Shown piece by piece: positions 17,511-38,210 of a stretch of DNA of 64,000 nt. Each line of letters starts with the position of its first letter. Position 1 is the stretch's first letter. Source of the stretch: Lonicera japonica (taxonomy: Eukaryota > Streptophyta > Magnoliopsida > Dipsacales > Caprifoliaceae). The stretch lies in NCBI GenBank assembly GCA_021464415.1, contig CM038466.1, positions 32,146,833 to 32,210,832 of the forward strand. The letters run 5' to 3'. The notes under the pieces were generated by a model that made no database searches, was not told the origin of the DNA, and saw nothing but the letters and a program-made list of their open reading frames with translations. Position numbers and translations under genes: made by a program.

Positions 17511-18138
17511 GGGAAAATCCTTCCACAAGTCCTCATTGACAACGGGTCAACCAAAAACGTCTGCCCCCTGAAGACCGCCAGATGTCTGGGTATCTTAGAC
17601 TTAGAACTTTCCCCATCAGCTATGACTGTTAGAGCCTATGACAACACCAGGAGGGCCGTTCTGGGTTCTCTAAGGCTTGATCTCATGGTCGGTCCCGAAA
17701 ATTTTCCGGCCGACTTTCAAATCATAGACATTTTCTCCAGTTTTAGCCTCCTGTTAGGAAGAGCATGGCTACACAACATAGGGGCACTCCCCTCCTCCTT
17801 ACACCAGAAGATCAAGATACCATTCGAAGGGAATGTAATCACCATCCAAGGAGATCCTGAAAGGACCTTGGTGGATCTGGAGTTACCCGTATTAGGCATC
17901 AGGAGCCAGAGTATACAGCTGGGAGGCTTTTCTTACGAGCCTCAAGTACAAACTCTCACCACCCAGAAAATAAAGTACCTACCCCCTGATAATATCCCCG
18001 GTCTCAGCACCAAGATCACCAATATGCTGAGAATGATGAAGTACTTACCCGGGGCCAGTATAGGAATGGGACAGCCAGGATTACTCCAGGCCTTAGAGCC
18101 AGTAATGAGGCACGAAAAAGAGGGTTTAGGGTACCAGC
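17511..18138 (+). pseudogene. Aspartic protease of element C
   Basis: Same frame as gag. The active-site motif IDNGS (Asp codon 17538-17540) is intact, followed by a retropepsin-like stretch with LLGRAWLHNIGA and a typical Tat protease tail ending GLGYQ. It would process the Gag-Pol polyprotein in the particle. The reading frame is cut at 18138 by the solo LTR insertion; after the insertion and its 5-bp duplication the same frame resumes at 19352. Confidence 0.8.
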
Positions 18139-19351
18139 TGTGAGAATCCGGGCCCGCGCGACCCGAGAAGAAATAGAAGTCCTCGTTCTCGGTTTTCTTT
18201 AAAAAAACGTATTTTGTAGAGTCGCCAGTTTGTTTTACGAGAAAACAAACAAAAGATCGTACGAAGGACAATTCGAAGACGAATTATCTTTCATACGTTT
18301 GAAACCAGAGATTTATTTTGAAAATTGACTTTGTTAGGGTTCGGGAACTACGTTACGAATTGGGAAGGTGTTAGGCACCCAATTCGCCCTTTCGGTCTCT
18401 TAATGGATCATGCATCTAATTCCTATTTTAGATATCTTGCAAGTAGTTCGAATTGTTTTCAGAATAATCCTTTCCGGATAAATTTAGTTTAAAACAATAT
18501 TTTTGAAATCAGACTCGAGCTTTGCGAGCGCCTACATATTCATTCGTAGAATGAAATCAGAGTCTCGTAGTTCCTTTATTTTGGAAACTGTTTTTGTTTT
18601 TGTTGGTTTTGAAAACGTGTCAAAACAGATTTTAGTTTTCTTGTAAAAACTTAGAATGGACTAGTTTAGAAAACAGTGAACTTCCTTGCAAGTTATCTAA
18701 TTTTTTGTATTAAAAATGCAATACCGAAATTTAGAGAAGTTGTAGAAAGTTATACCTGCTGCGCTTGGAGAAGATAGGAGAGCCTTGCCTTGCCTTCCTT
18801 CTCTCTCTAGAACTTTCTCTCTCTAAAGCTTTCTCTCACTAACTTCCTCTCACTAGCATTCTCTCTCAGAATTTCTCTAAAAATGATTTTCTCAAAACTT
18901 TGACAAAGCTCATACTTACCAAAAATACTATTGAATGTTGATGATCCCAAAATGGGATCCCAAGGGTCTTATTTATAGCAACATTTCCGCCAAAAACGCT
19001 CCAAAAAAGGCCAACCGCAGGGGTAGCTGCATGGGATGCGGCTGGGGCGTGCGACAGGGGTGTGCCAGCCGTACGGTTGGCAGGTAGCCGTACGGTTGGG
19101 CGTGCGGCTAGGGGTTGCAGTTAGCATGTGCCAACCGTACGGTTGGCAGGTAGCCGTACGGTTGGGCGGGTAGCCGTACGGTTGGGCGAAGAGGCAACAA
19201 GGGTTATCTTAGACTCCCAACGCGTCCAAAATTGGAGTCTTTCCTATCAGTCTTTCTACATGTATGATGATTCATGATTTGATGCATAAATGCTTGCTTG
19301 TATGAAAATCAAGTTCACACGAGAGTCGTGGATTGGGGTGTTCACACCAGC
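18134..19351 (-). mobile_element. Solo LTR inserted between protease and RT of C, with TSD
   Basis: 1,208-bp LTR (18139-19346) in minus orientation with termini TGTGAGAATCC...GTGTTCACA, flanked by perfect 5-bp duplications CCAGC (18134-18138 and 19347-19351). On the minus strand it starts TGTGAACACCCCAATCCACG. It resembles element D's LTR at the U5 end (shared GGGTTCGGGAACTA and CCCTTTCGGTCTCT) but is a different family. No internal region remains, as expected from LTR-LTR recombination. The TATA box is at 18969-18977 (minus) with a palindrome array upstream. Confidence 0.93.
18969..19181 (-). promoter_or_regulatory. Promoter of the solo LTR: CCGTACGG palindromes upstream of TATA
   Basis: Five copies of CCGTACGG (19069, 19088, 19135, 19154, 19174) in contexts such as the perfect 16-bp palindrome CCAACCGTACGGTTGG (19131-19146). 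They lie about 90-210 bp upstream of a minus-strand TATA box (TTATTTATA, 18969-18977). The layout parallels the TGTCGCGCGACA arrays of A/B/C with an unrelated palindrome. Confidence 0.65.
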
Positions 19352-20931
19352 ATACCAAAGAAGACGACTAAGAGAAAAGAATTCGAGGGCATCAGTATCC
19401 GAGCTTTAGCTCTCTAAATGGGTTTTTCGTCAAAGAATGAGAGGACTTCCCCTTGTGCGGCTTTCAAGAGCCCTGGAGAAATAGCGACGGAGAGAACCTT
19501 CCAGGATGGGAAATCTTCTATGAAGAGGACCTTTTTATCAAGGAAAACATTGTGCATAATTTCTCTACCAAACTAACGATCGGGTCGAGGGAAGAAAATA
19601 AAGACAAAGAAGAGGAAGAGGAAGAAATGATCGGAGATCTCTTCGACATCATGGCTCTAGGGGACGATGAGCCAGGAGACGACCCTGTACACTTGATACA
19701 CACTGATCCAAATTACAAAGGGGGAAAGAGCGAAATTGTAAGGGTGAGAGATAAGAGTGAGGGTAGGGCTAGGGAGGAGTCACTCCTAGATTTACTTTTT
19801 AAACTTATACCTGTAAACACTATTATCAATGAAGAAAACTCTATTTTGCGTTATCATGTTGATTTTAATTCTGTAATTGCTTATATGGAGTTGGAGAAAC
19901 TAAACGAACACCCCGAACGGGAGGAGCAGCATATACAGAGCGAGGAAGGAGATAATCTTATGGTTAACCTCGGGACGGAGGAGGAAAGAAAAGAGGTCCG
20001 TATTAGGGCAAGTCTAAATGAGACAGAAAGAGAAGAATTCACACAAACTCTGAATGAGTTTAGGCCCGTCAAGCAGAAGTTGAGAAAACTTACGCCTGAA
20101 TGGTCCCTGAAAGTAAAAGAAGAAGTGATGAAACAACTGAGTGTGGGGTTCTTGCGAGTGATCGAGTACCCTTCATGGTTAGCCAACATTGTACCCGTCC
20201 CAAAAGCAAATGAGAAAGTTCGCATGTGTGTGGATTATCGAAATCTCAATAAAGCCTGCCCAAAAGATGATTTCCCATTGCCCAACATTGATTTGATAGT
20301 GGATAACACCGCCAACCATGCCCTGAAGTCATTCGTAGATGGTTTCGCCGGATATAATCAGATCAAAATGCATCTGGATCACCAAGAGAAAACAACGTTT
20401 ATCACACCATGGGGAACGTACTGCTACACCGTTATGCCATTCGGGCTGAAGAATGCCAGAGCAACGTATCAGAGGGCAGCAACAGCTATCTTCCACGATA
20501 TGATTCACAAAGAGGTAGAGGTGTATGTGGATGGCATGATAATCAAGTCGAAGGAGAGGGAAGGCCATGTACCAGCCTTGCGAGCCTTCTTTGACCGACT
20601 CCGCCAGTATCAAATGAGACTCAATCCGCAAAAATGTGTGTTCGGGGTAACCAAAGGAAAACTCATGGGATATGTCGTCAGTAAGAAGGGGATCGAGGTA
20701 GACCCTGCCAAAGTTTGAGCTATCCAAGACATGCCCCAGCCTCGTACCGAGAAAGAGGTCCGAGGATTTTTAGGAAATTTGCAGTACATCAGCAGGTTCA
20801 TCTCTCAGCTTACTCAAACTTGCGAACCCATCTTCAAACTCCTGAGGAAGTCTTCACCAGGAGAATGGGACGAGCAGTGCCAAGAGGCTTTTGACAGAAT
20901 TAAGAATTACCTCTCCAACCCCCAGTTTTAG
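19352..20931 (+). pseudogene. Reverse transcriptase of element C
   Basis: Frame continuous with the protease once the solo LTR is discounted. Stops: TAA 19369, TGA 19438, TGA 20716 (fits CGA to TGA). Motifs: FQEPWRNSDGENLPGWEIFYEEDLF in the linker region, then the RT with VDYRNLNKACPKDDFPLP, FVDGFAGYNQIKM, VMPFGLKNARATYQR and a thumb at MRLNPQKCVFGV. The catalytic YVDD box is YVDG (20524-20535): the second Asp is Gly. The frame ends at a TAG (20929) produced by a one-base loss near 20915-20925, beyond which homology continues in another frame. It would have copied element RNA to cDNA in the particle. Confidence 0.87.
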
Positions 20932-21350
20932 CCCCACCACAGACCGGACTACCACTAATCCTATACCTGACCGTCATTGATTCAGCTGCAGGAGCCATGC
21001 TAGCCCAACACCTGACCGATACACAGAAAGAGCAGGCCATCTACTACATCAGCAAGAAATTGTCCCCATTTGAGATAAACTACACGCCTTTGGAGAAATC
21101 ATGCATTGCTCTCGTCTGGGTAACGCAGAAATTACGACATTACATGCTGACTTTCCCGGTCATCCTAGCATCACGAATTGATTCGTTAAAATACCTTTTC
21201 GAGAAACCAGCTCTCTCGAACCGTATGGCAAAATGGTTATTCTTACTCTCCGAATTTGACATCACCTACGTAACCCAGAAGGTAGTCAAAGGCAAGATCA
21301 TAGCTGATTACCTGGCCCACAATCCGATATTAGGGGACATGCTAGAAGAA
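20932..21350 (+). pseudogene. First RNase H domain of element C
   Basis: After the frameshift, the sequence reads ...VIDSAAGAMLAQH, YYISKKLSPFEINYTPLEKS, then a tether-like stretch to KIIADYLAHNP. This is the ordinary gypsy RNase H position. In Tat elements the first RNase H is often degenerate because the second one takes over; that is family knowledge, not something tested here. Confidence 0.75.
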
Positions 21351-21393
21351 GCCGAATTCCCAGACAAAACTATAATGAATGTCAAGACCGATG

Positions 21394-21929
21394 AAGATTG
21401 GAGGTTGTACTTCGACGGGGCCGCCAACCGAAACGGGAACGGGATAGGCATCCTGTTAGTCTTTCCAGACCAAACTCACTCCCCGGTATCATATCGTCTA
21501 GACTTTTTCTGCACCAACAACATGGCCGAATACGAAGCCTACATTATCGGGTTAGAGATCGCACTCCAAAAAGGTATAAAAAGAATATAAGTATACGGAG
21601 ATTCAGCATTAGTGGTCCACCAAGTTCTGAAGGAATGGAAGATCAGAGATGAGAAATTAGTCCCTTACCTCGCTCGACTGGGTGATGTCGCAGGAAGATT
21701 TGAGCATGCAGAATTTTACTATGTCCCCAGGTCACAGAACAGTTTTGCTGATGCACTAGCAACCCTGGCATCTATGATAGATATCCCAGAGGGGATGGAA
21801 GAAATAACTCTTACTGTGCAAAAGAAATCCGAACCAGCACACTGCATGGCCCTTGAGGTAGAGAATGGAGAGAATGGGGACTCAACCACTTGGTTTTACG
21901 ATATCTGGAACCTGTTGAAAAATCACTAG
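21394..21929 (+). pseudogene. Archaeal-type (second) RNase H of element C
   Basis: WRLYFDGAANRNGNGIGILL with AEYEAYIIGLEIALQKG, then VYGDSALVVHQ, then NSFADALATLASM: the four acidic catalytic positions (D, E, D, D) are all present. This extra RNase H is diagnostic of Tat-lineage elements. Broken by TAA at 21588 (just before VYGDS) and TAG at 21927 (fits CAG to TAG). It would degrade the RNA strand of the RNA/DNA hybrid. Confidence 0.83.
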
Positions 21930-23135
21930 TATCCCGAGCAAACAGACAAGAAGACACGGGTCACACTCAGGAGATTAGCATCAGGGTTCATACTTTGTGC
22001 CGGTAGGCTATACAAGAGGAACTACGACGGGACCCATCTCCAATGTCTGACAGAAAAAGAGTCCTTCAAAATGATGGATCAGATACATGGGGGCGATTGT
22101 GGGCCTCACATGAGCGGCCATACACTTGCCCACAAGATCATCAGTCAAGGCTATTACTGGTCTACCCTACAGAACGACTGCGTTAACCACGTACGCCATT
22201 GTCACAAATGCCAGATTCATGCTAAATCTCAAAAACTGCCTCCGAAAGAGTTGTACAACATGACTGCTCCCTGGCCATTTGCAACCTGGGGAATCAACAT
22301 CATCGGAAAGATTTCACCCAAAGCCAGCAACGGCCATGAATTCATATTAGTGGCCATCGACTACTTCACCAAATGGGTAGAAGCCGAGTCTTTCCAAACC
22401 CTTGACGCCAGAAAGGTTGCCCAATTCATCCGACGGAACATCATCTGCCGGTATGGGGTCCCACACGAGATCATCTCAGACAACGGCACTCACTTCGAGG
22501 GGGAGGCTAATTCCGTCATGGAAGAATACGGTATTACCCGACACATATCTTCGCCATACAGGCCACAAACCAATGGCGCAGCGGAGGCCGCCAACAAGAA
22601 TTTGAAGAATATCCTAAGCAAAATGACCGACACCTACCGGGGCTGGCCAGAGAAATTACCATATGCATTGTGGGGATACCGCACCACTGAGAGGGTCTCC
22701 ACCGGGGCAACCCCGTTCTCTCTTACATACGGAATGGAAGCAGTCCTGCCTGTTGAGTTAGAGGTCCCCTCTCTCAGGGTAATGCTAGAAAATCAAGTCA
22801 ATGAACTAGAGTGGGTCTAGGCACGTCATAACGAGCTAGCCCTACTGAATGAGAAGAGATTGAAAGCCGCATACCACCACCAAGGGTATCAGAAGAGAAT
22901 CGCTCGAGCATTTAACCAGAAAGTAAAAATTTGGGGTATCAATAAGAACGACATCTTATTGAAAGAAATTCGAGAGCCAGCCAGAGATCCAAGGAGAAAG
23001 TTTGGGCAAAAGTGGACAGGGCCTTATATCGTCAAAGAGATTAATACGGGGGGTGCCGCTATACTCGCTGACTTAGATGGACAGTTACTACATTCACCAG
23101 TCAACATGGACCGACTGAAGAAGTATTATCAATAG
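21930..23135 (+). pseudogene. Integrase of element C
   Basis: Same frame as the second RNase H. The HHCC zinc domain is complete (QIHGGDCG...GHTLAHK...CVNHVRHCHKCQ). In the DDE core the first Asp is replaced by Asn (WGINIIG, codon 22296), while the second Asp (SDNGTHF, 22479) and the Glu (AAEAANKN, 22584) are kept, so the enzyme should be inactive. TAG at 22818 interrupts the C-terminal domain, which continues through a GPY-like GQKWTGPYIVKEI to the natural stop at 23133-23135. No chromodomain, as in other Tat elements. Confidence 0.87.
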
Positions 23136-23503
23136 GCATAAACATGTGTAGATAAGAACTACGTAAACCTGAGCCCCAACTCAAACTTTTGTTCTTTGTA
23201 AAAATCAAAAGGGGAACGTAGGCAACCTGAGAAGTGACTTCAGGCCCGGTTTTAACTTTGTAAAAAAAATTTATTTCCCATAAAATAGTCCTTCATATAT
23301 TATTAGAAAGTGGTTCAGAACACCGGAAGTTACAAAGGAGGTACAGTGTACAAAGAAGAAACTAATCCCTAGGGGTTGGCCACACTAGGTCCTCAGTGGA
23401 CAAATCAATACGAGCCTCGTCCAGGATCTGGTACGCAAAAACAATGTTCTCCTCTGTGGATGCAGAATCCATGAACCGGAACCACTCCATTTGGAAAGGA
23501 TCA
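23136..23503 (+). other. Post-pol spacer of element C
   Basis: Conserved non-coding block also found in A (4860-5050) and B (reverse, 34990-35175), with AACTACGTAAACCTGAGCCC and GGCAACCTGAGAAGT. Separates pol from the convergent antisense gene. Confidence 0.5.
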
Positions 23504-24615
23504 TCAATCAGCTCTCCTTCCAGAGACCCTCAACGAGAGCGGATAAGTCAGCCTGGAGGGCCGGGTAATACCGAAATGGGCATAGTTGAATTGACGAGTC
23601 AGTCGAGCACGCCACATCCTCTCTACCGATAAAGAAACATGTTGGGTCACAAACTTAGATTCAGAGGAGAAATTGTTTAGACCAAGGGGAATGTCCTGAG
23701 GAACGTTGAACTGCCGAAGAAGACGTCCTGGGAGATAAAAGGAGGTGAACCAGAGCCCACGGAGCCTAACATAGTTCTGACCCCCAGTACTAAGCACCAT
23801 CGCCCTCAACTTCCACCAGGGGATGTTCCACCGAATGGCACGAAAATTCTCCGAAAACCACACCGACCAATCAGAGGAAGACATGGTCAAAGCACCAAAG
23901 AGGGGACGATGGAAGAAATGAGTTGAATTGTCGAGTCGAACCCCGTTGAAGCCCACCGATCAAAAATGCTCCAACAGCCACATATATAGCAAGCGCGGAC
24001 TTCCCCTAAAAAAGGGCGAAGCCCCCCTTTGAATATCGTCTAGGCCGTTCAGAGTCTCTGCAAGAACAATAGGCACTATGGACTCTCCATTTCTAGCATG
24101 ATATATCAAACTCAGAATAGTCGGATCAACGTGGGAAGAACCCGTCACTAGTAACATATCAGAGACAAGGCAGATCAAGGCCGCCGCAGTACGCCCCACG
24201 CCATAAGAGGCTCTATCTTCGTAACAATGAAAGAACCTCACCATTTTATGGAGGTCAAGGAGTCCGTCGGTAATAAAACCATCATAGGCTGCCTGGGGAA
24301 TGGCTAACAGAGCAATTAGCATGTCTCGGGGACCGATTTCTTCCATGGGAACGGCCATCGGGAGACGAACGTCAGAACGCAACAGCCAGGAGAACTCCTC
24401 ATAAGTCGGACAGAGCTCATCTAGTCCAAAGAGGAAGAGATGGTTCGCAGGACTTTAGAAATGCAAAGCACCTAACAGAAAGGAAAAATTGACGGGACGA
24501 TGACGCCAGCCCGCTAAAGGGCTAAATGCACCAAAATTCAGACCATTTTCAGAAGATATCAGAGCATCTCGGGCATTAAAGTAAGAAAAATCAGATTTTG
24601 TGCGATAAGAAGACA
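23504..24615 (-). pseudogene. Antisense gene 1 of C: DUF7745-like protein, two stops
   Basis: Single-exon frame of about 370 codons starting at the ATG 24615-24613 (MSSYRTKSDFSYFNARDAL) and ending at 23504. Two in-frame stops: TAA 24457-24455 and TGA 23959-23957 (fits CGA to TGA). Recognisable pieces: LFLFGLDELCPTYEEFSWLL near the N-terminus and SIVPIVLAETLNGLD...FFRGSPRLLYMWLLEHF in the middle, which resemble the plant transposon-associated DUF7745 family; then WNIPWWKLRAMVLSTGG and HVSLSVERMWRARLTRQF. The molecular function of this family is not known to me. Its own promoter (TATA 24655-24663) lies upstream. Internally deleted copies are in A and B. Family assignment is from memory of the motif pattern. 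Confidence 0.68.
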
Positions 24616-24654
24616 TTTTGGAAAGGTGTGGGGATGAAAGAAGGAAGATGGGTG

Positions 24655-24732
24655 TATTTATAGCAAAAAAGAGAGTCCTGTGCTTGTTTGTCGCGCGACA
24701 AACCCATGCCCAGGAGGGATTGTCGCGCGACA
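24655..24732 (-). promoter_or_regulatory. Promoter of antisense gene 1 with two perfect TGTCGCGCGACA boxes
   Basis: Minus-strand TATA box CTATAAATA (24655-24663) is 40 bp upstream of the ATG. Two perfect palindromes lie further upstream at 24689-24700 and 24721-24732, the nearer one 25 bp from the TATA box. The flanks, TTTGTCGCGCGACAAACCCA, resemble the units in the LTR of B (TTTGTCGTGCGACAAACCCA). Confidence 0.7.
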
Positions 24733-25055
24733 AACCCACTTAGGGCCACCCTATTTTTGTTTTCCTTTCACATAAGAGGCATTCTTGCCAAAAGAAACAT
24801 TTCTGGATGCATTCTTGTTTTCACTTTGTTCTTTTTGCAGAAAACCTAAATGTCACTACACTACAAGGTATGGCTTCTAAATCACTGACTCATATATATA
24901 TATATGTGAATATATATCTTTCACAGACAGAGAATAATAGTATATATCATCAGACACAAATAAAGATTTTCATAAAATATAATAAAAGAACATTTTTCAA
25001 AAACTACATAATCTGTCTAAAGCACATCTAAAAAATAAATACATATCTGTCCAAA
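24733..25055. other. Spacer between the two antisense genes of C
   Basis: AT-rich, with a TA microsatellite near 24893-24905. The 24750-24840 part matches the ends of the gene-1 region in A and B. A possible downstream exon of the PMD gene could hide here, because a weak donor (CGA/GTATAT) exists at about 25093, but I cannot support one. Confidence 0.4.
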
Positions 25056-28000
25056 CTAACAAAAATGCAGAAAGAGAAAAAACCAATATACTCGAAAGCG
25101 TTTTGACACGCTCCCACTCTCACTCGAGCCCTCATCGGGAGTAAGATCAACCACTGGGACACCCTGAACAGGAGGGACTGCCGCCTGAGAAGGCCTCGTC
25201 GACTGAACAGGAGCCGTAGGACGGATCACCGACGACCGCGAACGCCTGGAGGTCCGACTGCTACTCCTCCGAGACTCCGTCCGGGCACGAGAAGAAGTCA
25301 GAGGATCGTCCGGCAGCAAAGAAACGTCGATGGCCCTCTGGTAGTCACGTATATAAGCTGGAGGGTCTCGACCGACGTACTGGAGCAAGTTCCAGCTGTA
25401 TAGGTATTGGGCGTGCCAAGTTCGCAGATCCGCCACCCGTACACTCACCCGCTGAAAAAAGACATAAGACAAGAGAATCAACATAGTCAAGAGAATAAAT
25501 AAGCACAGTTAAAGACAAGAGAAGGTGAAAAAAGTACCTCGTCACCAGGGCGACCCCCCAAGTAGTCAAAAGTATCCTCAGGAAGAGGATACTCGGGGAC
25601 CGTGTATCGACGCAAACCAGCGCCGACATAAGAAATGTCTCTAGGGAACGGGGGTAGATCTACCCAAGGAATGGATGGCCCCACCGGAGCATCAACGGAA
25701 GTAGACCCCCCCTCCTCGCGGATCGGGAACAGGGAAGGCCGAGATGAAAAACCCCCGAAACCTGGAGATCGGGCTGGAGGCCCCATAGCAGTCGTCGGAA
25801 GGGGAGTCAGCGTGGCGTAGGTACGGACACCGAGAGAATCCACCATGGCTATCGCCCTCAAAGGCGGGACCCCACTAGAAGGAGTAGTCGCCACAGCAGG
25901 AGGGGTCCGCCCGAACTGCTCGTAATCCGCCCCAAGGTCCGCAGGCTCCCAAGACCTCAAAAAAACCCGCTCTCCCCTCAGCAGCCTCGACAGCGTCAAA
26001 GAGGACCTCCGGAGACACGGAAGGGCCAGTGGGGAACTCAAAACCCTCAGCACGCCGCTCCTCCGCGGGTGTCGTCTGGGGTGGCTGCTCCGGAGCCGCT
26101 GTCGTATCACCGCCCTCACCCCCTGACCTGTCACCACCTTCGACAGCGGCAGGAATGTCCCTCTCACCCTCTGGATCCTCATCCTCGGAGTCCAAGACAT
26201 TGTCCCTCTGATCAGGGACAGGGGGCAGGTGACCCGGGATCGTCCTGGCTAGATGGGTGTGTCCTCGTATATAATGGGGATCACCTCCCAATGCCCGATA
26301 TCTCTCGTAGAAGACCCGTCCCTGAGTCCCCTTCAGCTCCCTCATCAAGTAACGGGTAGCGAAAGCGGCGTAGTCTCCCTCTTCAGTGAACGTCTGAAAG
26401 CCAAGACCGTCCACCAAGGCCTGCACCGTCACGGGATCAATCTCGCCCGTCCGCCTCATCAGAACTGGGGGAAATAGTGGAACTCGAGGCCACTGGGCCG
26501 GTGTGTGCTGGCGAATAACTCTCTCGCCTAAGTAAAAGTGAAGGCCATACTCATCCCTAATCAGTCGCCTGGTCCTCGAGGCGGTCAAAGCACAACCATA
26601 TCCAAAATGAAGACCCAGATCACCCCAGGGGGCCCACTCAATCTACAAAGAGAACAAAATTTTGTTTCAGTTATTTATATTCTATCTACCATTTATTTCT
26701 TGAAAAGAAAGAATACTAAAATATTTACCTGCTCCTCCAGCAGGTCATGGAAGGCAATAGCACCGGTCTCTCGAGTCCGGTATACATAGGGAGCCCTGTA
26801 GTTCCCTGCGATGAATCGGCGGAGAAAAGGAAACTGATCCTCGTTCTTGACGAGGAGATCCACCTGGGCGCGTCCCAAACGGGTATACGCCACAAACCAA
26901 CTCTGAAGAAGAAATATGAAAAGTATCAGCAATAATCAAATAGGTAAAAAGTAAATGAACTAGAACAAAGTTAAGGGAATAAAAGTATATACCTCCCACA
27001 GCAGAGAAAAGCCCTTAAGGTTCAAGGCTAGGTGGCGAGAAACCTGATCCATAGCGTCATAGAGGACGGCAAGGATAAAACCACCCCAATCATAGTCGAA
27101 CATAATGCTAAAATCCCGAAGATAGGGCAGCCACCAGAGATGGGCCGTGTCCCCCCCACGGGCCTCGAACAAATCATGGAACGTCAGCAGAAGAAGGACG
27201 CGGGCATACTGGCGCGCCTCCTGACGGGTCATCGGCGCTCCTGAGGCAACTAATCTGGCTCTCTCCGTGGCTAGCCGGGTAACCAAGACGGCCCGAGGAA
27301 TCGTATCACCAGAACTCCGTCGCTCCGGAAACCATCCTAATGCACCAACAATGCCCTCTGCTATCAGACGCAAGGGGACATCGATCTGTATAGGGACCCC
27401 CTGAAGGAATCCCGGTCAGAGCAAACAGGTCAAGGGGGGTCATCGTCATCTCCCCCCAGCTCCAGTGAAAAGTATGAGTGGTGTCCCACCAGTGACAGGC
27501 CAGAGGTGACACCAACACAACTACCCTAGATACCCGCTCCGGGAGGGCATCAAAGAGAGAGCCAAAAGGAGTAGCAAGAAGCAACTCCTGGACAGGGGCC
27601 GGTGCCTGTCGCCACTCTAAAGAAATGGTGTTGGGGGAACCCCAACCGCGGCCAACCCACTGCAGAAAAAAAGAACGAGTACAGGATTAGGAGAGTACTT
27701 TGGTGTAATTATGAGAGTTATAGGGTTATAAGGGTAAATTATGTAATTTTCCAAACCTGAGGGTACTTTGGTGTAATTATGAGAGTTATAGGGTTATAAG
27801 GGTAAATTATGTAATTTTCCAAACCTGAGGGTATTTTGGTGTAATTATGAGAGTTATAGGGTTATAAGGGTAAATTATGTAATTTTCCAAACCTGAGGGT
27901 ATTTTGGTGTAATTATGAGAGTTATAGGGTTATAAGGATAAATTATGTAATTTTCCAAACCTGAGGGTACTTTGGTGTAATTATGAGAGTTATAGGGTTA

Positions 28001-29067
28001 CAAGGGTAAATCATGTAATTTTCCAAACCTGAGGGTATTTTGGTATAATTATGAGAATTATAGGGTAAACTATGTAATTTTCCAAACCTGAGGGTACTTT
28101 AGTGTAATTATGAGAGTTATAGGGTTATAAGGGTAAATTATGTAATTTTCCAAACCTGAGGGTATTTTGGTGTAATTATGAGAGTTATAGGGTAAATTAT
28201 GTAATTTTCCAAACCTGAGGGTATTATGGTGTAATTATGAGAGTTATAGGGTTATAAGGGTAAACTATGTAATTTTCCAAACTTGAGGGTATTTTTGTGT
28301 AATTATGAGAGTTATAGGGTTATAAGGGTAAATTATGTAATTTTCCAAACCTGAGGGTATTTTGGTGTAATTATGAGAATTGTAGGGTTACAAGGGTAAA
28401 CTATGTAATTTTCCAAACCTGAGGGTACTTTGGTGTAATTATGAGAGTTATAAGGTTATAAGGGTAAACTATGTAATTTTCCAAACCTGAGGGTACTTTG
28501 GTGTAATTATGAGAGTTATAGGGTTATAAGGATAAATTATGTAAATTTCCAAACCTAAGGGTATTTTGGTGTAATTATGAGAGTTATAGGGTTATAAGGA
28601 TAAAATATGTAATTATTGGTATAATTATAAGAGTTATAGAGTTATAGGGGTACATTGTGTAATTTTCTAAAGGAACCTAAAGGGTATCACAAGTAAAAGT
28701 ATGTGTTCGCTAAATCGGACGTTATTTCTAAAAACAGACATGCATACTAACATTTGTCGAAATACATGCAGGAAACGACAGAAATAATAGAACAGATAAA
28801 AAAAGCAAAAAGAAGACATACCAGAGACCGTCGACGAATCTCGTGAGAAGCAGGCTCCATCGGGAGCCACGGAACATCCGGGACCGGAGCAGCCAGGGTA
28901 ATATCTCGATAAATAACCGCCCGACCGCGGTCCACGCCATCCTCTCCATACCAGTCGAGGTCCTCCCAATCGTCATGATGAGGACTACACCGAAGGACGC
29001 CCTGAGCGTCAGTAAAAGTGACCTCCTCCTGGTCACCCTCTAATCTATCGGGCTATGCGGGATCCAT
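25056..29067 (-). pseudogene. Antisense gene 2 of C: spliced plant mobile domain (PMD) protein
   Basis: Five exons can be read on the minus strand with consensus splice sites: 29067-28822 (ATG, then a TAG at codon 5), 27659-26993, 26902-26729, 26642-25538 and 25451-25056. Donors are CTG/GTATGT, GAG/GTATAT, CAG/GTAAAT and GAG/GTACTT; acceptors are TGCAG, TTCAG, TGTAG and TTCAG. Exon 2 carries the hallmark of the plant mobile domain: HWWDTTHTFHWSWGEMTMTP followed by LDLFALTGIPSGG. Exon 4 ends in an acidic, Pro/Glu-rich linker; exon 5 is basic and Ser/Arg-rich (RRSSSRTSRRSRSS), suggesting a nuclear or nucleic-acid-binding tail. One-base frameshifts lie near 27395-27405 (exon 2) and 25950-26000 (exon 4). 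PMD proteins include host MAIN/MAIL-type factors and transposon-borne forms. The gene is now dead, but its structure was once under coding constraint. Confidence 0.78.
27690..28670. repeat. About 68-bp tandem repeats inside intron 1 of the PMD gene
   Basis: About 14 units of CCTGAGGGTA(C/T)TTTGGTGTA, then ATTATGAGAGTTATAGGG, then TTATAAGGGTAAATTATG, then TAATTTTCCAAA, some shortened by loss of the GTTATAAGG part. The array lies wholly between donor 28821 and acceptor 27660. The homologous arrays in A and B survive although most PMD exons there are gone. Confidence 0.87.
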
Positions 29068-29205
29068 GAGAGTATGAGTGAATGAGCGAGAAAAGTCGGA
29101 AAAATCGAAAAAGCGGCAGGGCTTCCGCGCTTGAGAGAAGAAAGAAGGAGAGCTAGAGAGAGAAAGAGAAATAAGAGAATGAGGTGGAATGAGCTCAGCA
29201 AGGGG

Positions 29206-29289
29206 CTTATATAGTGGGGCAGTTTGTCGCGCGACAAATGGCCACATTGTCGCGCGACAAAGAGCCAGACACCGAAGTGTTGCGCGACA
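29206..29289 (-). promoter_or_regulatory. Promoter of the PMD gene with three TGTCGCGCGACA-type boxes
   Basis: Minus-strand TATA box CTATATAAG (29206-29214) with perfect palindromes at 29225-29236 and 29248-29259 and a variant TGTTGCGCGACA at 29278-29289. The nearest box is 10 bp from the TATA box. A pyrimidine-rich 5' UTR of about 110 bp leads to the ATG at 29067. This reproduces the box-then-TATA arrangement of the LTRs in an internal, oppositely oriented promoter. Confidence 0.7.
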
Positions 29290-30110
29290 AACCCATCTCA
29301 TCCCCTGATTTTTTGGCCTTTGTCTTATTTTATCTCTTGCAGGGGTACTCTAGAGAAGCAGTTTTCGAAAAAAAAAAAATTACTAAAAACCGCACACCCA
29401 GGATGAAAATTCGAGGAAGGCTTCCAAATCATCTCTCCAAAAATGTGAGAACAAATAGAAACAGATAAAGTAGTATCTGATCTCCCAGAAAGGACCAAGT
29501 CCATCAATAAGAAAAAGCAGAATATCAAAAATAAGACGGGGATAGAAAAAATTGAAATAGTAGAAAAGAGAAAAAAAAACCCGCATGAGCGCCCAAAGCG
29601 AGCGAGAGAAACAGAATTGCAGAGTGACAGGGAGAGCCACACCAAAAGTGACAGCTAAGCCAAAACCGGCTCAGGGCTTCGTTTTGGGTGAGTAAGGCTC
29701 CTGATCACGACAAAGGGATGAAAAGACTCCTGGTCAAAAACAGAGAAGGCCAGGAAAAGTCTTTCCCAAAAGAGGAAGAAATAAGGGTATCGAAAAATAG
29801 ATTACGATGTGGGCCCACCAAGAGAGAAAACTAAGAAGAAAACAGAGATCATATATTGAACTTTCATACAAATTTTCTTTTCAGCACGAAACAGAAGAGA
29901 TGGTTTGGAAAAACTCGGACCATCACTCTGCGGAGAGCAAAAGAAATTCGAAAACTGCCTTCTGAGAGAAGTATCTTCACTCGAGGGAAACATGAGAGTA
30001 AAGTTCAGAAAGATATAGGAAAACGGATATCCGGAGATAGATTAGACCTCGAGAAGCTCTTTTCACCCTCACTAAGTTTTCTCTCGCTCACTCTAGCAGT
30101 CTAAGAGAGA
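29290..30110 (+). other. Distal non-coding segment of C
   Basis: Matches A 7300-7900 (conserved CGCATGAGCGCCCA, AAACCGGCTCAGGGCTTCG). No conserved reading frame. Confidence 0.5.
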
Positions 30111-30720
30111 TAGCGATTAAGAAGAGAACACAAACACAAGCCCTTTGCGGAGGCAAAACACAAACACAAGCCCTCGCCAGAGGCGAGATACTCACAAAGA
30201 CCTCCCAGAGGCAAATTTTCTTCCTTATTTTCAGATCAAAGAGTCCTCCCACCTGAGGCGCAATGGTAGTCCTCCCACCTGAGGCGAAGCCCTCCCAGAG
30301 AGGCACACGGTAGTCCTCCCACTTGAGGCGAGAAGATCAAAAGCCCTCTCATAGAGGCACAATGTAGCAATGATAGTCCTCCCACCTGAGGCGTAGCCCT
30401 CCCAGAGAGGCACACGGTAGTCCTCCCACCTGAGGAGAAGCCCTCCCAGATAGGCACATGGTAGTCCTCCCACCTGAGGCGAGAAGATCAAAAGCCCTCC
30501 CAGAGAGGCACAGTGTAGCAATGGTAGTCCTCCCACCTGAGGCGAAGCCCTCTCAGTGAGGCACACGGTAGTCCTCCCACCTGAGGCGCAATGGTAGTCC
30601 TCCCATCTGAGGCGAGTGGAGCAAACAAAAGTCCTTGAGAGAGGCAAAGAGGTAACACAAGCCCTCTCTGTAGGCAAAACCAAACACAAAAGCCCTCTCG
30701 GGAGGCACTCACGAGCACTT
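30110..30720. repeat. Distal tandem repeats of C
   Basis: Alternating units TAGTCCTCCCACCTGAGGCG and AAGCCCTCCCAGAGAGGCAC, about 30-35 bp each. Same family as the distal arrays in A (9000-9240) and B. Antisense translations give repetitive GGRTT/SGRASPQVGGL peptides that I regard as spurious. Confidence 0.82.
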
Positions 30721-30808
30721 TGTGCATATACACTCCTTTAGAGTTCATGCGGGAGCCATGGATCATGATCTCTTCCAGTCGCCTCAATTCCTTGCAAGCA
30801 AGAAACTT

Positions 30809-30822
30809 GAGTCGAGAGGGTC
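30809..30822 (+). other. Candidate polypurine tract of C
   Basis: GAGTCGAGAGGGTC immediately before the 3' LTR, as in A. Positional assignment only. Confidence 0.4.
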
Positions 30823-32390
30823 TGTAGACACCCCGATCCGTGACTCCCGCAAGAACCCTAACGACCTTTGAGAACTACTGTTTTGGGGCCCGGGACCCAC
30901 CCGAGCACCCGAAACTACCCTGAAAGGTTTTGTTGGCCAACAAACCTATTTTTAAGAGAGATTGTCGCACGACAAATGGATATGTTGCGTGACAACCACC
31001 ACTATGTCGCGCGACAATCACTCCTGACACTAGACCATCCACTCTCTGACATATCAGTCTGTCAGAAATATCACTTCAGCCGTTTGTCGCGCGACATTGG
31101 ACACATTGTCGCGTGACATATCAGTATGTCGCACGACATATGCCCCTTTTTGGGAAATGTCGCGCGACAATCCTCCCCGAGCAGTATAAATAGGCCAACA
31201 CCCCTAAGGGTTCAAGGCAGCAACTTAAGATTGGAGAATCCTAAGCCTAAAATCTGATTTTCTAGTCTTTCATTAAGCATTTTCTATTATCATCTTATTT
31301 TCGAAGAATTATCGAATCTATCCTCGACACTCGAGGTGTCCCGTTTTTGGAATCGAATTCTCGAAAAATATCTGAAGAAGGAAAAGATCATTATCGCCGG
31401 AAATCTCGATCTCCGCCGGATTATATTTTCTTTCTTATTATTATTCTCGTCGGGAAGGTAAAGAAAGTCTCTTCTAGTATTTAACATTAAATATCTGTGT
31501 ACTTGTTTCATTTCTGTTGTTTTGTCCACATTTTATTTGAATAAACTTATGTCCAAGTTACAAATAGTCTATCGTTTTCAACACAAAAGACCCTGATAAA
31601 ACCATTTGCAAAACCAGAAGAGTAAGTGCATTACCATCCGGATAAAATCCTGTTTTCAAAACCCGGACCGGTAAAACTTACTTAGGAATTAAAAACCCAG
31701 TTTATCCTATCTGTTTCATAGATTGTGATACGTCCGGGAGAACCCCTCTCAAGAGTTCCAATTCCATATTGAATTAGTTCCCCTAAAAGATCCAAACTTT
31801 TTCAAAACAAGTCAAAACCCGAGAAAACCGTCATTATCCGAGAAATAATACGGGAAACTCCCTCTCTAAAGAAAAATGATTTTTTGTCACTTGTATTTGC
31901 ATTTCTCAAAACGAAACATCGGATCTCGGAACACAAAGGTCTTCACCCCTTTTTCCCTTTTTCCCAAAGAATTAGGGTCTTTACTTAGAAAGTAGTAGAC
32001 TGTCGGTAAAAGCATCCAAGTTTTTCAACATAGAATAAACATATAAAAGACCACTAAAGACCGAAAGGGTGGAATGGGTGCTTAACACCTTCCCAAACCG
32101 TAATATAGTTTCCGAGCCCTATAGAATCCTGGTTTCGTAGACAAACGTGTAAAGAAAGGCTTATCTATAGCCTTTCCTCTTACACAAATTTTTTGTCCGT
32201 TTTTCTCGTAAAACGTACTGGCGACTCTGAACGAACCATCTTGCATCTAGAAATAGAACATAGGGACACATGATATGAATCAATCAACGAAAATAACTCC
32301 AGCAAATGAAACGACAGAATCCGTTCCGACGTTTTAGACGCCCAACCAAACGGGGACGAGACCCGGGGGTCGCATTTGCGGATTCTCACA
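30823..32390 (+). repeat. 3' LTR of element C
   Basis: TGTAGACACCCCGATC...GGATTCTCACA, 1,568 bp. Seven palindrome units (30963-31168 region: two CAC, three perfect, plus TGTTGCGTGACA and TGTCGCGTGACA) against eight in the 5' LTR. TATA box TATAAATAGG at 31185. Followed directly by element B sequence. Confidence 0.92.
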
Positions 32391-33180
32391 ACCTGCCACT
32401 CTACATTTCTGTTCCTCTCGTTCACTCTGGGAGCTCATGCGGGATTTTTCTTTTTTCTACTCTTTCAATTTTTTCTATTCCCATCTTATTCTGACATTTT
32501 CTCATTCTTATTGCTGGTTTTCAACCCTCTAGAGATCAGAGATTTCTTTGCAGGTTGTGCTCTCTAGTGATTTTGAAGAAATGACTTAGAATCTTGCATT
32601 GGATATTATCGTGCGTGTGTGTGTTTTTTCTACACAAAGGTCAAGAAAAACTACCTTGAAGTCCCCCTACCAAAAAATGCCAATTTTTGAGATAGGATTA
32701 GTCATGCGATAGTTCAATGGAGTAGGTTTTGTCCCACAAGCGGGCTCTATTCTTCCCATTCTCATATTCTCTCTCTAGCTTCTCTTTTCTCGAGTTTTCC
32801 CGTATCTGGATACTCAGGGTGTTCTACGATGTAGTTCCCATGCTAATTACAAGGATGATAGGGTAGATCGTGACTGCGATGTGGCATACTAGGATGTGGT
32901 ATGTGCTAAGAATGTGCATGGTTATGTTTGGTGATCTATTTAAAGATAATGTACGTTATGCATGTATTAGTGAAGTGGTGTTTTAACAATGTTTGATAAC
33001 TTTGATATGTAAAACTATTGCTCGTAGGCTTAAGGATACTTCCCATGCTGTTTCGTTGATCTTGATTCGTAGTTTCCTGTATGTTTAAACAAACATTCAT
33101 TTAATTCACATAATCATCTCAACAGTAACATCCGATTTTTGGAACTTACATACTTTTACCTTTCAAACCTTAAAAACTCT
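32391..33180 (-). other. Distal segment and PMD exon-1 scrap of B
   Basis: Reverse complement of A 6700-7450. The stretch around 32860-32895 corresponds to the PMD exon-1 relic of A. No ORF supported. Confidence 0.5.
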
Positions 33181-34330
33181 CATAAAGTATGCACTTAGGT
33201 TAATACATAATTCCTATAACTCTCATAATTACCCAACGTATCCTCAGGTTTTGAAAATTACATAATTTTATCCTATAATTCCCATAACTCTCGTAATTAC
33301 CCAAAGTACCCTCAAGTTTTTGAAAATTACATAATTTTATCCTATAAATCTCATAACTCTTGTAATTATCCAAAGTACCCTTAGGTTTTAAAAATTACAT
33401 AATTTTACCCTCTTATTATATAACTTGCATAATTACACTAAAGTACCCTCAGGTTTTTGAAAATTACATAATTTTATCCTATAATTCCCATAACTCTCGT
33501 AATTACCCAAAGTACCCTCAGGTTTTTGAAAATTATATAGTTTATCCTATAAATCCTATAACTCTCGTAATTACCCAAAGTACCCTCAGGGTTTAGAAAT
33601 TACATAATTTTATCCTATAAATCCCATAACTCTCGTAATTACCTAAAGTATCCTCAGGTTTTACAAAATTACATAATTTTATCCTATAATTCCCATAACT
33701 CTCGTAATTACCCAAAATACCCTAAGGTTTTTGAAAATTATATAGTTTTATCCTATAAATTCCATAACTCTCGTAATTATCCAAAGTACCGTCAGGTTTT
33801 AAAAATTACATAATTTTATCCTATAAATCCCATAACTCTCGTAATTACCCAAAGTACCCTCAGGTTTTACAAAATTACATAATTTTATCCTATAAATCTC
33901 ATAACTCTCGAAATTACCCAAAGTACCCTCAGGTTTTTGAAAATTACATAATTTTATCCTATAATTATATAACTCTCATAATTACACTAAAGTACCCTCA
34001 GGTTTATAAAAATCACCCTCTTATTAAAATATCCTCATCTTTTATTTTATCTCTCATAAAAATACCCTCAGGTTTTATTATTTCACACAAAATTACCCTT
34101 TTATATACTCTTACAAAAAATACCTTCAGGTTTTGAAAATTACATAATTTTTCCCTCTTATAACTCACATAATTTACACAAAAGTACCCCCAGGTTTATA
34201 AAAATCACCCTCTTATTTATACATCTCTCATACGCTCGGGTTTCATTGATCACATAATAATACTCTTTTATCTACATACCTCGCATATATACAAAGAATA
34301 CACTCAGGTTTTTTACCCATAAAAGTACCC
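33180..34330. repeat. Tandem repeats of B (inverted PMD intron repeats)
   Basis: About 14 degenerate units based on CCCAAAGTACCCTCAGGTTT, then TTGAAAATTACATAATTTTA, then TCCTATAAATCCCATAACTC. They are the reverse complement of the arrays in A and C but more diverged among themselves. Confidence 0.82.
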
Positions 34331-34629
34331 CTAGGTGTAATATGGAGTAAGAAAATACGCGGTTAAACATGCTGATGTGAAATATGCCTATAATGACGTA
34401 ATAAAAATGACCATCAGGCCCCTGCAAAAGTGAAAGGAATTAAGTGAGTAGCACAAAAAAGTGATTTTTTGGCAGAAATGAATCCGTATGTTGGAGAAAT
34501 GTATTTGTAGCAAGGTTTGTTACATGATAAACTATGAGTACAAGTGCACGATTTCTCCGATAAATACACTTCTTTTCCTTCCTTCATCCCCACACTTACT
34601 TTTTTATCTATGTAAAAACCAAGTCATCT

Positions 34630-34860
34630 TACTGCACAAATGTTGACATTTCTTCTATCAAAGCTCGAGATGCCCTGGTACCCTCGGAACTCAAGTTTAC
34701 CACTCCCTATACTTCCCTATATGTGGAGTGTATGTGGCATGGACAGCTGACTCGGTAATTCAACTATGCACAGTTTGGCTTTTCTTAGCCCCTCCATGCT
34801 GACATCATTCGTTCAATCTGGCAATTGGTGGTGGAAGATCTGATTGTCATCCCTTATTTA
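34630..34860 (+). pseudogene. Relic of the DUF7745-like gene in B
   Basis: Plus strand (antisense to B). Reads VDISSIKARDALVPSEL, then the C-terminal HV/YTSLYVECMWHGQLTR-type stretch: the same internal fusion as in A (5160-5410). Confidence 0.65.
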
Positions 34861-35207
34861 ATGTAATGGTTTCGGTTCGTGGGCTCAAAGCCCTATGAGG
34901 CATGAATGAAGCTCGAGTTGCACTGGTGGCTGAGGATATGATGTGGTTTTTTTCCAAGGCTAAAATTGAGTGTTTAGATAGCAAATGTACTGATTGTTTG
35001 GTGTTCTAAACCACTGCTTATGAAGTTTGAAAAATTGTTCTCTTTATGAAACAAAAAAGTCTTTATAATAATTAAACCGGGCCTGAAGTAACTTCTCAGG
35101 TTGCCTACGTTCCCCGTGGTATTTCCTCCATAAACAAAAGTGAGTTGGGGCTCAGGTTTACGTAGTTCTGGATTACATGCTATTGCTTTAATAATAATAT
35201 TTCTTGA

Positions 35208-35345
35208 ATGTAGCATCTGACCATCTATATTTGTGATTATTACGGCTCCCCTTGCGTTGATTTTTTTAACGATGTATGGCTAAGTTCTGAACTTTTTTCT
35301 CGGATCTCTTGTTGGCTTCTCTAATCTTTCTCAAAACTACATTGT
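35208..35345 (-). pseudogene. Integrase C-terminal relic of B
   Basis: Counterpart of A 4697-4838, with small indels. Shows that A and B share the pol deletion. Confidence 0.6.
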
Positions 35346-35439
35346 TCTCACAAATACCCCAAGTCTTCACTTTTTAATTTTAAAGGCCCCATAATGACGA
35401 TACACTGCCTTCTACCGTTTCTCATTTAGCGATGCTAAC

Positions 35440-37104
35440 TCACTTTAGCGGGTTGTTGGCCATATTTGATCCACCTGGTGCGGGGATTGTTCCTTCTTCG
35501 ATTAGATCTTGGATGATGTGTCGGAGGGATAGACATCTATCTGTGTCATGGCCCACAGCTTGGTGGTATAAACAGTTCTCGTTCATCATCCAAGAATAAG
35601 GGACGGGATTTGGTGGAGGACGAGGGTTGAGTGGGGTAACCAGGCCCGCATTTCGTAGCAGTTCAAAACTTTTGGTTAGGGTTGTGGGGAAGTTGCTGAA
35701 TTTTATATTTTTCTTGGGTTGATATGAATTGGAGGTTTCGGCTTGTATAGGCCACATTAATTGGGGTTGTTGCTGCTGAAAGGGGTTTTGCTGGTACGAA
35801 TAAGAGCTTAGCTGGTTTACAACGGGGGTGGCCGTGCTCTTTTTGGTATACGAGGCTTTCCTTATTTCGGTTTCTGCTTTCCTGGTTAACTCTTCTTCTA
35901 CTTGGGATCCCATGCTTAAAAGTGCTCGAAAATGTGGGAACACGTGCTTTCCCATACAAGTCAATACAGCCGGAGTGAAGTTTTTCTGAATTATCTCTAA
36001 CTGCTCCTCTTCGTCTGGTCGTTTGGACATCTGGGATGCTATTTCTCTCCAACGGGTAACAAAATCACTGAAGCTCTCTTTCTCACCCTGTTTGGCCATC
36101 TCTAAGTGTTTACGGATGACTTCTAACTCTTCATTAGACCCGTATTTAGACATGAATTCCTTGATGATATCCCCCAAGTTTTTTTGCGGTGCCTCTCTAA
36201 ATCAAAAAACCATCTCAGGGCTGCCCCCGTGAGAGTCATATGAAATGCTTGGGCCAACTCGGGTTCTCCACAGCCAAATACTTGCATGGATCGAATATAT
36301 GATTGTAGATGTGTTTTCGGGAGGGTTGTGCCGGTGAACTTAGTAATAGATGGAAGCGTGAACCCCTGTGGTAGTCTTGCCTCGAGGTAGAGGGAGAACG
36401 CATTCATGTCTCTGATCTCGTCGGCCCATTTTATTGACGAAATCCCTCTTTGAAGAATTTGCATCTGCTCCTTCAGTTTCTTCAATTATTCACTCTCTCT
36501 GGATAGCTCTTCTGGCTGTTCTCTTGTTATTACTGATTCTCCATATGCTGCTCGGAGTCTGTTCAGATCGGAAAATTCTTTTAAAGGGCCTTGTGGCTGC
36601 GGCCATATGTTGCTGTGGTTGTTCGAGGTAGGCTACGCCTAGTGGGCCTTGTGGCTGCGGCCATATAATGGGTTATTCTTGTTGTTGATAGTTGGGGCTA
36701 GAATCTGGGGCCTATTGGACCTGGTTATTGGGATCGGGCTGGATGGGAATTGTTTGTTGTGGAAGGGTTCCCCGATTTGAAGGTGGCACTTGTCGAGCCA
36801 TTTCTGCTTCCTGGCTCCGATGGTTACTTTGTAAATTTAACACTTGTGTGCGTGTGGCCTGCCCCTGATTCATATCTTGGTTTGGAAGCGATCGTTCAAA
36901 ACCTGTCGGTGCAGTTCGTTCGGCTGACCATTCTTCTATTCGGGCCCGAGTGTTCTGTTGCTCAGTAGTGATGCTGGCTAGGCTTTGGCTAACGGTTATC
37001 AATAGGCGATGCATTTCTTCTAGGGTGGGCGGAGCCCTTGGTACCTCTGTTAAATTCGGATGGACTGTTCGGATTTCTGAGTCATTCGAATTTGAAACTG
37101 ACAT
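35440..37104 (-). pseudogene. gag: Gag of element B, frameshifted
   Basis: Start at ATG 37104-37102 (MSVSNSNDSEIRTV), matching the start in A. TAG at 36714-36712 ends the N-terminal part. The middle part (36485-36123, with PQGFTLPSITKFTGTTLPKT and ALRWFFDLERHRKKTW) is in a shifted frame. The last part (36177-35440, GDIIKEFMSKYGSNEELEV to NMANNPLK) returns to the original frame, so two compensating indels bracket the middle. The 21-bp stretch GGGCCTTGTGGCTGCGGCCA-T is duplicated near 36588 and 36643. The zinc-like CLYHQAVGHDTDRC is present near 35570. Confidence 0.82.
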
Positions 37105-37299
37105 AGTCGGAGTGCTCGGTCGAACTAATCTACCGGTGTAGTCTCTTCCTGCCCAACCTTCTAGACTGTAGTCGTAGGGCTGTAGATATAGCGAAGATAA
37201 AGGAAGACTAAGCTGTGATTCATTTCTGCCAAGAGAAATCACGGAGAAAGAAAAACAAAGAAAACCAAGTTTCGGGTGTTCTTAAAGACACGTTAATAA

Positions 37300-37870: not shown

Positions 37871-38210
37871 TTTGGGGTAAAAATCACACTCGTAAGAACC
37901 ATGCATGAATAGTGATGTGCGTGAAAACAAGAGTTTTCGAAAGGTTTAATTGTAAATATCTTATCTTAGAGGTGTATTTTAAAAACGCCATTTTTATTGG
38001 AAAAAAATTTATTCACATTCAATTTAACAAGTAGGGAAAATCCTAGACATATGTCTATGTAAATGAATGGACTCTACTGCGCCTCTAGGTCAAGTCAACA
38101 ATAAAATCCAGGCGCCACGTCAGGGGGCAAGTAGGGAAAGCAGTAAAAACATGTATATCAACATATTCAAAAACAAAAAGTCAAAATATAAGAGCCTAGT
38201 TTTCTTATGG

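What the first reader, a model, noticed from the sequence alone, without database searches (positions are those of the whole stretch)
24655..29289. The same palindrome drives LTRs and two oppositely oriented internal genes
Seen: TGTCGCGCGACA occurs twice upstream of the minus-strand TATA box of the DUF7745-like gene (24689, 24721; TATA 24655-24663) and three times (one variant) upstream of the TATA box of the PMD gene (29225, 29248, 29278; TATA 29206-29214). The only other places it appears are the LTR promoters. One regulator could thus switch genomic RNA and antisense accessory genes together, in effect a retrotransposon regulon. Co-regulation is inference. I know of no description of this arrangement.
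Basis: partly seen in the sequence, partly recalled or inferred. Interest (0 to 1): 0.88.

Follow-up and report, generated by a model that had tools for sequence, protein, structure and literature searches.

The report
Retrotransposon regulon with family-specific palindromic sites
A plant jumping gene carries the same short mirror-image DNA site in its main promoter and in the promoters of two backward-running accessory genes, and a distant relative in the same genome carries a different site in its main promoter and in the one accessory promoter examined, which suggests that each family runs its own private gene switch.

Summary
TGTCGCGCGACA sits only in LTR promoters and upstream of two antisense TATA boxes of element C, an Ogre/Tat-like Ty3-gypsy element. 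The host genome holds at least 40 copies of each internal promoter (own included). In C plus 20 fetched copies, 217 of 226 sites (up to 2 mismatches) lie in the LTR, PMD and DUF7745-like promoters; the other 9 form one LTR-like cluster. Both antisense genes show purifying selection (pN/pS 0.13-0.20; wrong frames 1.10-1.59).

D's DUF promoter was not reached.

Best reading: a family-specific operator through which one trans-acting factor, probably element-encoded, controls genomic RNA and antisense genes together; gag-only relatives keep the LTR sites without intact antisense genes. Binder and expression are unproven.

There is precedent: Sireviruses (Ty1/copia) have element-specific palindromes in LTRs and upstream of env, and Grande gene23 has its own antisense promoter. 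New variant of a known kind.

The parts
12786..32390 (+). Element C, Ogre/Tat-like Ty3-gypsy element inserted in element B
   Evidence: LTRs 12786-14373 and 30823-32390, 95.5% identical; gag, G-patch, RT, RNase H plus weak second RNase H (RVT_3), integrase; PBS at 14375
24689..24732 (-). Two perfect palindromes, spacing 32, upstream of the DUF7745-like gene
   Evidence: spacing 32 in 17 of 18 copies
24655..24663 (-). TATA box CTATAAATA of the DUF7745-like gene
   Evidence: 1.3% pairwise difference among 18 copies
23504..24616 (-). Antisense DUF7745-like gene, approximate extent (first ATG 24616-24614; broken by stops in this copy)
   Evidence: pN/pS 0.20 (16 and 9 sequences)
29225..29289 (-). 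Three palindromes (the third TGTTGCGCGACA), spacings 23 and 30, upstream of the PMD gene
   Evidence: same spacings in 21 of 21 copies
29206..29214 (-). TATA box CTATATAAG of the PMD gene
   Evidence: no difference among 21 copies
25000..29067 (-). Antisense multi-exon plant mobile domain gene, approximate extent (first ATG 29067-29065; broken in this copy by stops and a frameshift)
   Evidence: pN/pS 0.13-0.20; splice sites mostly kept among the variants printed, 19-21 sequences per site
27691..28671 (.). About 68-bp tandem array in PMD intron 1; homologous array in gag-only A (5685-6647) and B (34197-33213)
12926..13154 (+). C 5'LTR promoter, 8 sites (up to 2 mismatches) in two clusters before TATAAATA
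30963..31169 (+). C 3'LTR promoter, 7 sites
551..10709 (+). Element A: gag-only relative, LTRs 99.9% identical, 9 sites per LTR, none internal
   Evidence: LTR sites 658-915 and 9561-9818
10710..12785 (-). Element B, 3' part; 7 LTR sites 10715-10930
32391..40829 (-). Element B, 5' part (gag, no pol found); 6 LTR sites 39642-39835
45375..47376 (-). LTR of element D with the other core: TGTCCGCGGACA (46459), TGTTCGCGGACA (46438), TGTCCACGGACA (46804), TATA near 46400

Best explanation
The palindrome is a family-specific operator for a dimeric DNA-binding regulator. Copies stand at fixed spacings just upstream of TATA boxes in the LTR (genomic RNA) and in the promoters of two antisense accessory genes, so one trans-acting factor sets the output of all three. 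The factor is most likely encoded by the element (the PMD or the DUF7745-like protein), making a feedback circuit, and it changed specificity together with its sites when families C and D diverged. Gag-only relatives keep the LTR sites, lack intact antisense genes, and are probably regulated in trans. Shown: sites, positions, conservation, LTR/PMD-promoter covariation over two families, purifying selection on both genes. Inferred: binding, direction of the effect (activation, repression or anti-silencing), and identity of the binder.
For: 51 sites against 0.52 expected, all in LTR promoters or the two internal promoters. In C plus 20 copies, 217 of 226 sites lie in the three promoter zones and the other 9 in one LTR-like cluster of L020; spacings 23 and 30 in 21 of 21, 32 in 17 of 18. 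Site columns are 90-95% identical between LTRs of A, B and C and the rest of U3 74-77% (columns were picked by match to the core, which favours them). Both antisense genes show purifying selection, pN/pS 0.13-0.20, wrong frames 1.10-1.59; TATA boxes are nearly invariant. Covariation, up to 2 mismatches: C-family promoters 217 C-core and 0 D-core sites (PMD 63, DUF 36, 3'LTR 118); D-family PMD promoters (13) and LTRs (10) 33 and 25 D-core and 0 C-core sites. In three D loci the PMD promoter and the LTR lie together (L039, L041, and L045 with L046 about 2 kb away). Eight other PMD genes of this genome have no such site in the 5.2 kb fetched upstream. Two cores in one host fit family-encoded factors better than one host factor.
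Against: No binding, expression or transcript-start data. No DNA-binding domain found in the antisense pieces scanned (not every exon was scanned); no solved relative of the PMD piece; the model of a DUF7745-like homolog is poor (mean pLDDT 57). Only two cores were seen, and D's DUF promoter was not. By pairwise difference the sites are about as conserved as the adjoining promoter (3.9 vs 4.2%, and 7.1 vs 8.7%), and between C's own two LTRs slightly less conserved than the rest (94.0 vs 96.1%). PMD-promoter copies of both families were chosen by similarity to stretches that include the sites. One D locus (L042) also holds a nine-site C-core cluster about 2.9 kb upstream of its D LTR, spaced like an inserted LTR; it lies outside the LTR and was not counted.
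Confidence: 0.5

Rival explanations
1. A host transcription factor (or two related ones) binds the sites; the element has put its accessory genes under the same host signal as its LTR, for example stress or a cell type.
For: The Sirevirus authors found mainly stress-related host sites in their palindromes. No DNA-binding domain was found in the element's antisense pieces scanned.
Against: Two families in one host use different cores, each the same in its LTR and its PMD promoter; one host factor would not require that.
Confidence: 0.33
2. VANC-like anti-silencing: an element protein binds the sites to remove methylation rather than to act on the polymerase.
For: VANC proteins bind short motifs repeated in non-coding parts of their own element, introns included, and motif and protein coevolve (PMC5735166). 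The sites here are CpG-rich, and an array homologous to that in the PMD intron is present in gag-only elements.
Against: The sites sit at fixed distances from TATA and are not spread over the element. No homology to VANC was tested.
Confidence: 0.2
3. Inherited or duplicated sequence without function: the motif was copied between LTR and internal promoters by recombination and kept by descent.
For: Unit number varies, so duplication occurs. Some flanking bases are shared between the internal sites and B's LTR sites (GACAAACCCA). Within the family the sites are no more conserved than neighbouring promoter DNA.
Against: No blastn match of 150 bp or more joins LTR and internal promoters (shorter ones were not listed); C and D promoters share only matches of up to 9 bases; LTR sites are conserved against a diverged background; the same core change in LTR and PMD promoter is not expected by drift.
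Confidence: 0.07
4. The palindromes act in the RNA, for example by pairing of genomic RNAs.
For: U3 and the internal sites are all within the genomic RNA (general knowledge).
Against: The clusters are placed relative to TATA boxes, on either strand; a perfect 12-base palindrome has no loop for a hairpin of its own (inference).
Confidence: 0.04

Closest known systems
Sirevirus (Ty1/copia) RM boxes, Bousios et al. 2010, PMC2829016 (passages and sections 9 and 10 seen)
   Same: Element-specific palindromes, repeated upstream of the LTR TATA box and, in 9 of the 13 elements that have them, again upstream of an internal gene (env); CpG-rich; sequence differs between elements.
   Different: Other superfamily; env-type gene rather than antisense PMD/DUF7745-like genes (the env orientation as sense is from PMC7264820); the authors could not conclusively identify an internal promoter; CGG-CCG core. 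Here two antisense genes have clear TATA boxes.
Grande gene23 and Retand antisense ORFs (PMC7264820 passages; PMC11963269 parts 1-3 of 5 and passages)
   Same: [quoted passage not shown] gene23 is transcribed from its own promoter.
   Different: TRP28-type or unnamed proteins; no motif shared by LTR and internal promoter in what I saw.
Ogre elements with PMD ORFs (Neumann et al. 2019, PMC6317226, passages)
   Same: Tat clade, PMD in extra ORFs (57% of Ogre elements).
   Different: No promoter or cis-motif analysis in the passages seen.
Foamy virus LTR and internal promoter with Tas (PMC8670036 search listing; PMC4929722 abstract and outline)
   Same: Works alike: one element-encoded factor acts on the LTR and on an internal promoter.
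   Different: Animal retrovirus; no homology claimed; that its internal promoter runs in sense is recalled.
VANDAL/VANC anti-silencing (PMC5735166, passages)
   Same: Element-specific motif coevolving with an element-encoded binder, motif copies in non-coding DNA.
   Different: VANDAL transposons; motif YAGTATTAY, not palindromic; binder shown there, not here.
MAIN/MAIL1 host PMD proteins and the DOWN motif (PMC7156037, PMC9899485, passages)
   Same: PMD proteins linked to a promoter motif.
   Different: The motif in the MORC1 promoter, CATGCAGTTT, differs; direct binding is unknown there too.

Membership tests
Ogre/Tat clade of Ty3-gypsy | RT, RNase H and a second (archaeal-type) RNase H before integrase | tested here: inconclusive
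   RVT_1, RT_RNaseH and rve found in order; the second RNase H (RVT_3, E 0.003, 17.9 bits) is below its cut-off of 21.6
Ogre/Tat clade of Ty3-gypsy | PBS for tRNA-Arg | tested here: inconclusive
   TGGCGACTCTGCTGGGGA next to the LTR of A and C, TGGCGACTCTACTGGGGA in D; that this is tRNA-Arg is recalled, that Ogre uses tRNA-Arg is in PMC9289625
Ogre/Tat clade of Ty3-gypsy | Extra ORF with plant mobile domain | tested here: met
   PF10536 below its cut-off, 5 of 7 homologs annotated PF10536; frequent but not universal in Ogre (57%)
Ogre/Tat clade of Ty3-gypsy | Position in an RT tree | not tested
   no RT tree was built
Sirevirus RM-box system | Ty1/copia element with CGG-CCG palindromes | tested here: not met
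   domains are those of Ty3-gypsy, RT and RNase H before integrase; cores TGTCGCGCGACA and TGTCCGCGGACA
Sirevirus RM-box system | Element-specific palindrome in the LTR upstream of TATA and upstream of an internal gene | tested here: met
   (works like it)
Foamy-virus-type LTR/internal promoter transactivation | Element-encoded factor binds both promoters | not testable with these tools
   needs binding and reporter assays
VANC-type anti-silencing | VANC homolog; loss of methylation on expression | not tested
   no VANC sequence compared; methylation cannot be measured here

The most novel reading that the evidence does not exclude
Plant Ogre-type elements run a private transcription circuit: a PMD or DUF7745-like protein is a dedicated operator-binding regulator of its own family's LTR and of its own antisense genes; protein and operator coevolve and split into incompatible specificities within one genome; gag-only elements persist as cheaters that keep only the operators.
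Probability: 0.4. Interest if true: 0.86.

Novelty: new variant of a known kind. Interest (0 to 1): 0.7.

Why it matters
The function of antisense accessory genes in Tat-lineage elements, which are abundant in many plant genomes (general knowledge), is an open question. A family-specific operator shared by the LTR and these genes gives them a direct, testable role (self-encoded regulator) and gives a ready probe for the binder. With the Sirevirus precedent it suggests that two retrotransposon superfamilies arrived at the same design.

Tried and rejected
Chance: rejected. Peculiarity of one copy: rejected. General feature of PMD genes: not supported, 8 other PMD genes of this genome (L031-L038, picked from the list) have none in the 5.2 kb fetched upstream; whether those genes lie in transposons was not worked out. 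The MAIN/MAIL1 DOWN motif as the same site: rejected. Relatives in viral contigs: none found by one palindrome-pair pattern, one RT protein and one PBS pattern. Structure of a DUF7745-like homolog: confidence too low to search folds.

Not reached: a genome-wide scan for TGTCNNNNGACA pairs, a third family, D's DUF promoter.
Full report
OBSERVATION. With up to 2 mismatches the window has 51 sites, 0.52 expected, none outside LTR promoters and the two internal promoters. Self-comparison shows three related elements: A (551-10709, LTRs 99.9% identical), B (minus strand, cut in two by C) and C (12786-32390, LTRs 95.5% identical). C has gag, G-patch, RT, RNase H, a weak second RNase H and integrase. 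A and B have gag but no match to C's RT, RNase H or integrase (tblastn, E 1e-5). Of the antisense genes, piecewise tblastn (E 1e-3) finds scraps of the DUF7745-like gene in A and B and no PMD exon; the PMD-intron array is present in both. A fourth element D on the minus strand (LTR about 47376-45375, gag at 43635-42696) has palindromes with a different core, TGTCCGCGGACA.

THE TWO ANTISENSE GENES. The gene behind TATA 24663-24655 starts at ATG 24616; one of its pieces has 13 homologs, two of which weakly match DUF7745. The gene behind TATA 29214-29206 starts at ATG 29067 and is a multi-exon PMD gene. In C both are broken. Across C and up to 20 relatives the two genes show pN/pS 0.13-0.20 with pS 0.25-0.33; wrong frames give 1.10-1.59 (9 to 21 sequences per piece). 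Splice sites are mostly kept among the variants printed (up to 8 per site), with a few broken ones. So both look like real genes in the family's history.

FAMILY-WIDE TEST. The host genome is held: 886 Mb, 967 contigs. I fetched the 20 best of the 39 other PMD-promoter places. In these and C: 226 sites with up to 2 mismatches; PMD promoter 63 (21 of 21 copies), DUF promoter 36 (18 copies; L020 was set aside, L009 and L018 gave none), 3'LTR zone 118 (19 of 21; none in L013 and L024), and 9 others, all in L020 in a cluster spaced like an LTR. Expected by chance 0.13 per copy. Spacings 23 and 30 in all 21, 32 in 17 of 18. The PMD copies were selected by a query that includes its sites; the DUF and LTR counts were not. 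L015 and L016, on one contig, are near-identical. Results against special conservation: sites differ between copies about as much as adjoining promoter DNA (3.9 vs 4.2%; 7.1 vs 8.7%), though far below the genes' synonymous sites. Of the changed sites, 12 of 15 in the PMD promoter and 11 of 15 in the DUF promoter are changes seen in one copy only at that place (my reading, with C). Against C as reference, sites are 96% and the rest of the 300-350 bp 89% identical; for CpG positions alone the sites are ahead at the PMD promoter (97 vs 90%) but not at the DUF promoter (94 vs 97%, 64 cells). Between LTRs of A, B and C site columns are 90-95% and the rest of U3 74-77% identical; between C's two LTRs 94.0 and 96.1% (site columns were picked by match to the core, which favours them).

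COVARIATION. D's U3 has 40 scored places, its own included, at 79-100%. Of eight D-type stretches fetched (L029, L030, L039-L044), two (L039, L041) contain, just inside the 3'LTR and antisense, a homolog of PMD exon 1 (41% identity, E 1e-12 in L039; E 7e-6 in L041), and upstream of it D-core palindromes before a TATA box. The other six show no PMD piece; L029 and L030, about 8.2 kb from LTR promoter to LTR promoter, show gag and none of C's pol or antisense pieces, and the rest reach only 5 kb. L042 also holds nine C-core sites at 778-1025, about 2.9 kb upstream of its D LTR, spaced like an inserted LTR of the A/C kind; they lie outside the LTR and were not counted. The L039 promoter has 40 scored places (46 candidates) down to 66% identity; I fetched 11 further ones and one LTR promoter. 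Counting sites by nearest core (up to 2 mismatches, C-core:D-core): C family PMD 63:0, DUF 36:0, 3'LTR 118:0; A LTRs 18:0; B LTRs 13:0; D family PMD promoters (13) 0:33, LTRs (10) 0:25. With 1 mismatch the D counts are 12 (8 of 13 promoters) and 22 (10 of 10). At 3 mismatches 7 D-type matches and one tie appear in C-family stretches, no C-type match in D-family ones. D sites stand 19 and 29-31 bp apart (gaps of 49, 58 and 59 are sums of these) and 13 bp from the TATA box in 10 of 13; L050 and L056 lie further and L052 shows no TATA by my pattern. In three D loci PMD promoter and LTR lie together (L039, L041, and L045 with L046 about 2 kb away in fitting orientation). Eight other PMD genes of the genome lack either site in the 5.2 kb fetched upstream.

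MECHANISM. Perfect dyads of fixed length, spaced by about two or three helical turns just upstream of TATA, look like operators for a dimer (inference). Two cores in one host, each the same in LTR and PMD promoter, favour a family-specific factor. The best candidates are the two conserved antisense proteins, which would then control their own promoters. A, whose LTRs are nearly identical and so young, keeps 9 sites per LTR without intact antisense genes, as expected of an element regulated in trans. The direction of the effect is not known.

WHAT IS KNOWN. Antisense accessory genes with their own promoter: Grande gene23. PMD ORFs in 57% of Ogre elements. Retand antisense TRP28 genes, proposed as regulators. 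Closest in layout: Sirevirus RM boxes, element-specific palindromes in the LTR upstream of TATA and upstream of env. This lowers novelty: the arrangement is a new variant, in another superfamily, with antisense genes and clear internal TATA promoters. Foamy virus Tas and VANC are analogues of mechanism, not relatives.

VERDICT. Observation confirmed; regulon reading well supported as inference; binder and expression open.

Noticed in passing
27691-28671, 5685-6647, 34197-33213: The tandem array in PMD intron 1 of C has homologs in gag-only A and B, in which no PMD exon was found, so it may have a role of its own in cis.
   Followed up: partly
A, B, C LTRs, e.g. 13005-13050: Between the two palindrome clusters a second inverted repeat (TTCTGACA, 8 bases, TGTCAGAA in A) is well conserved among A, B and C.
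   Followed up: no
L020, 765-1012 (element-sense); L042, 778-1025 (element-sense): Nine-site C-core palindrome clusters spaced like an LTR: probably nested LTRs of the A/C kind.
   Followed up: no
46438-46470 and PMC2829016 Table 3: D's half-site GTCCG/CGGAC also occurs in several Sirevirus boxes in the opposite order (e.g. HOPIE, Usier, OPIE-2); a common class of binder is conceivable.
   Followed up: no
10705-10715: A's 3'LTR and B's 3'LTR both seem truncated at their junction, as after a deletion.
   Followed up: no
52456-56183: A Ty1/copia element on the minus strand (RVT_2, SH3_retrovirus, Retrotran_gag_2).
   Followed up: no
genome G000: 162 PMD matches from 117 scored candidates, some with long open frames.
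   Followed up: partly
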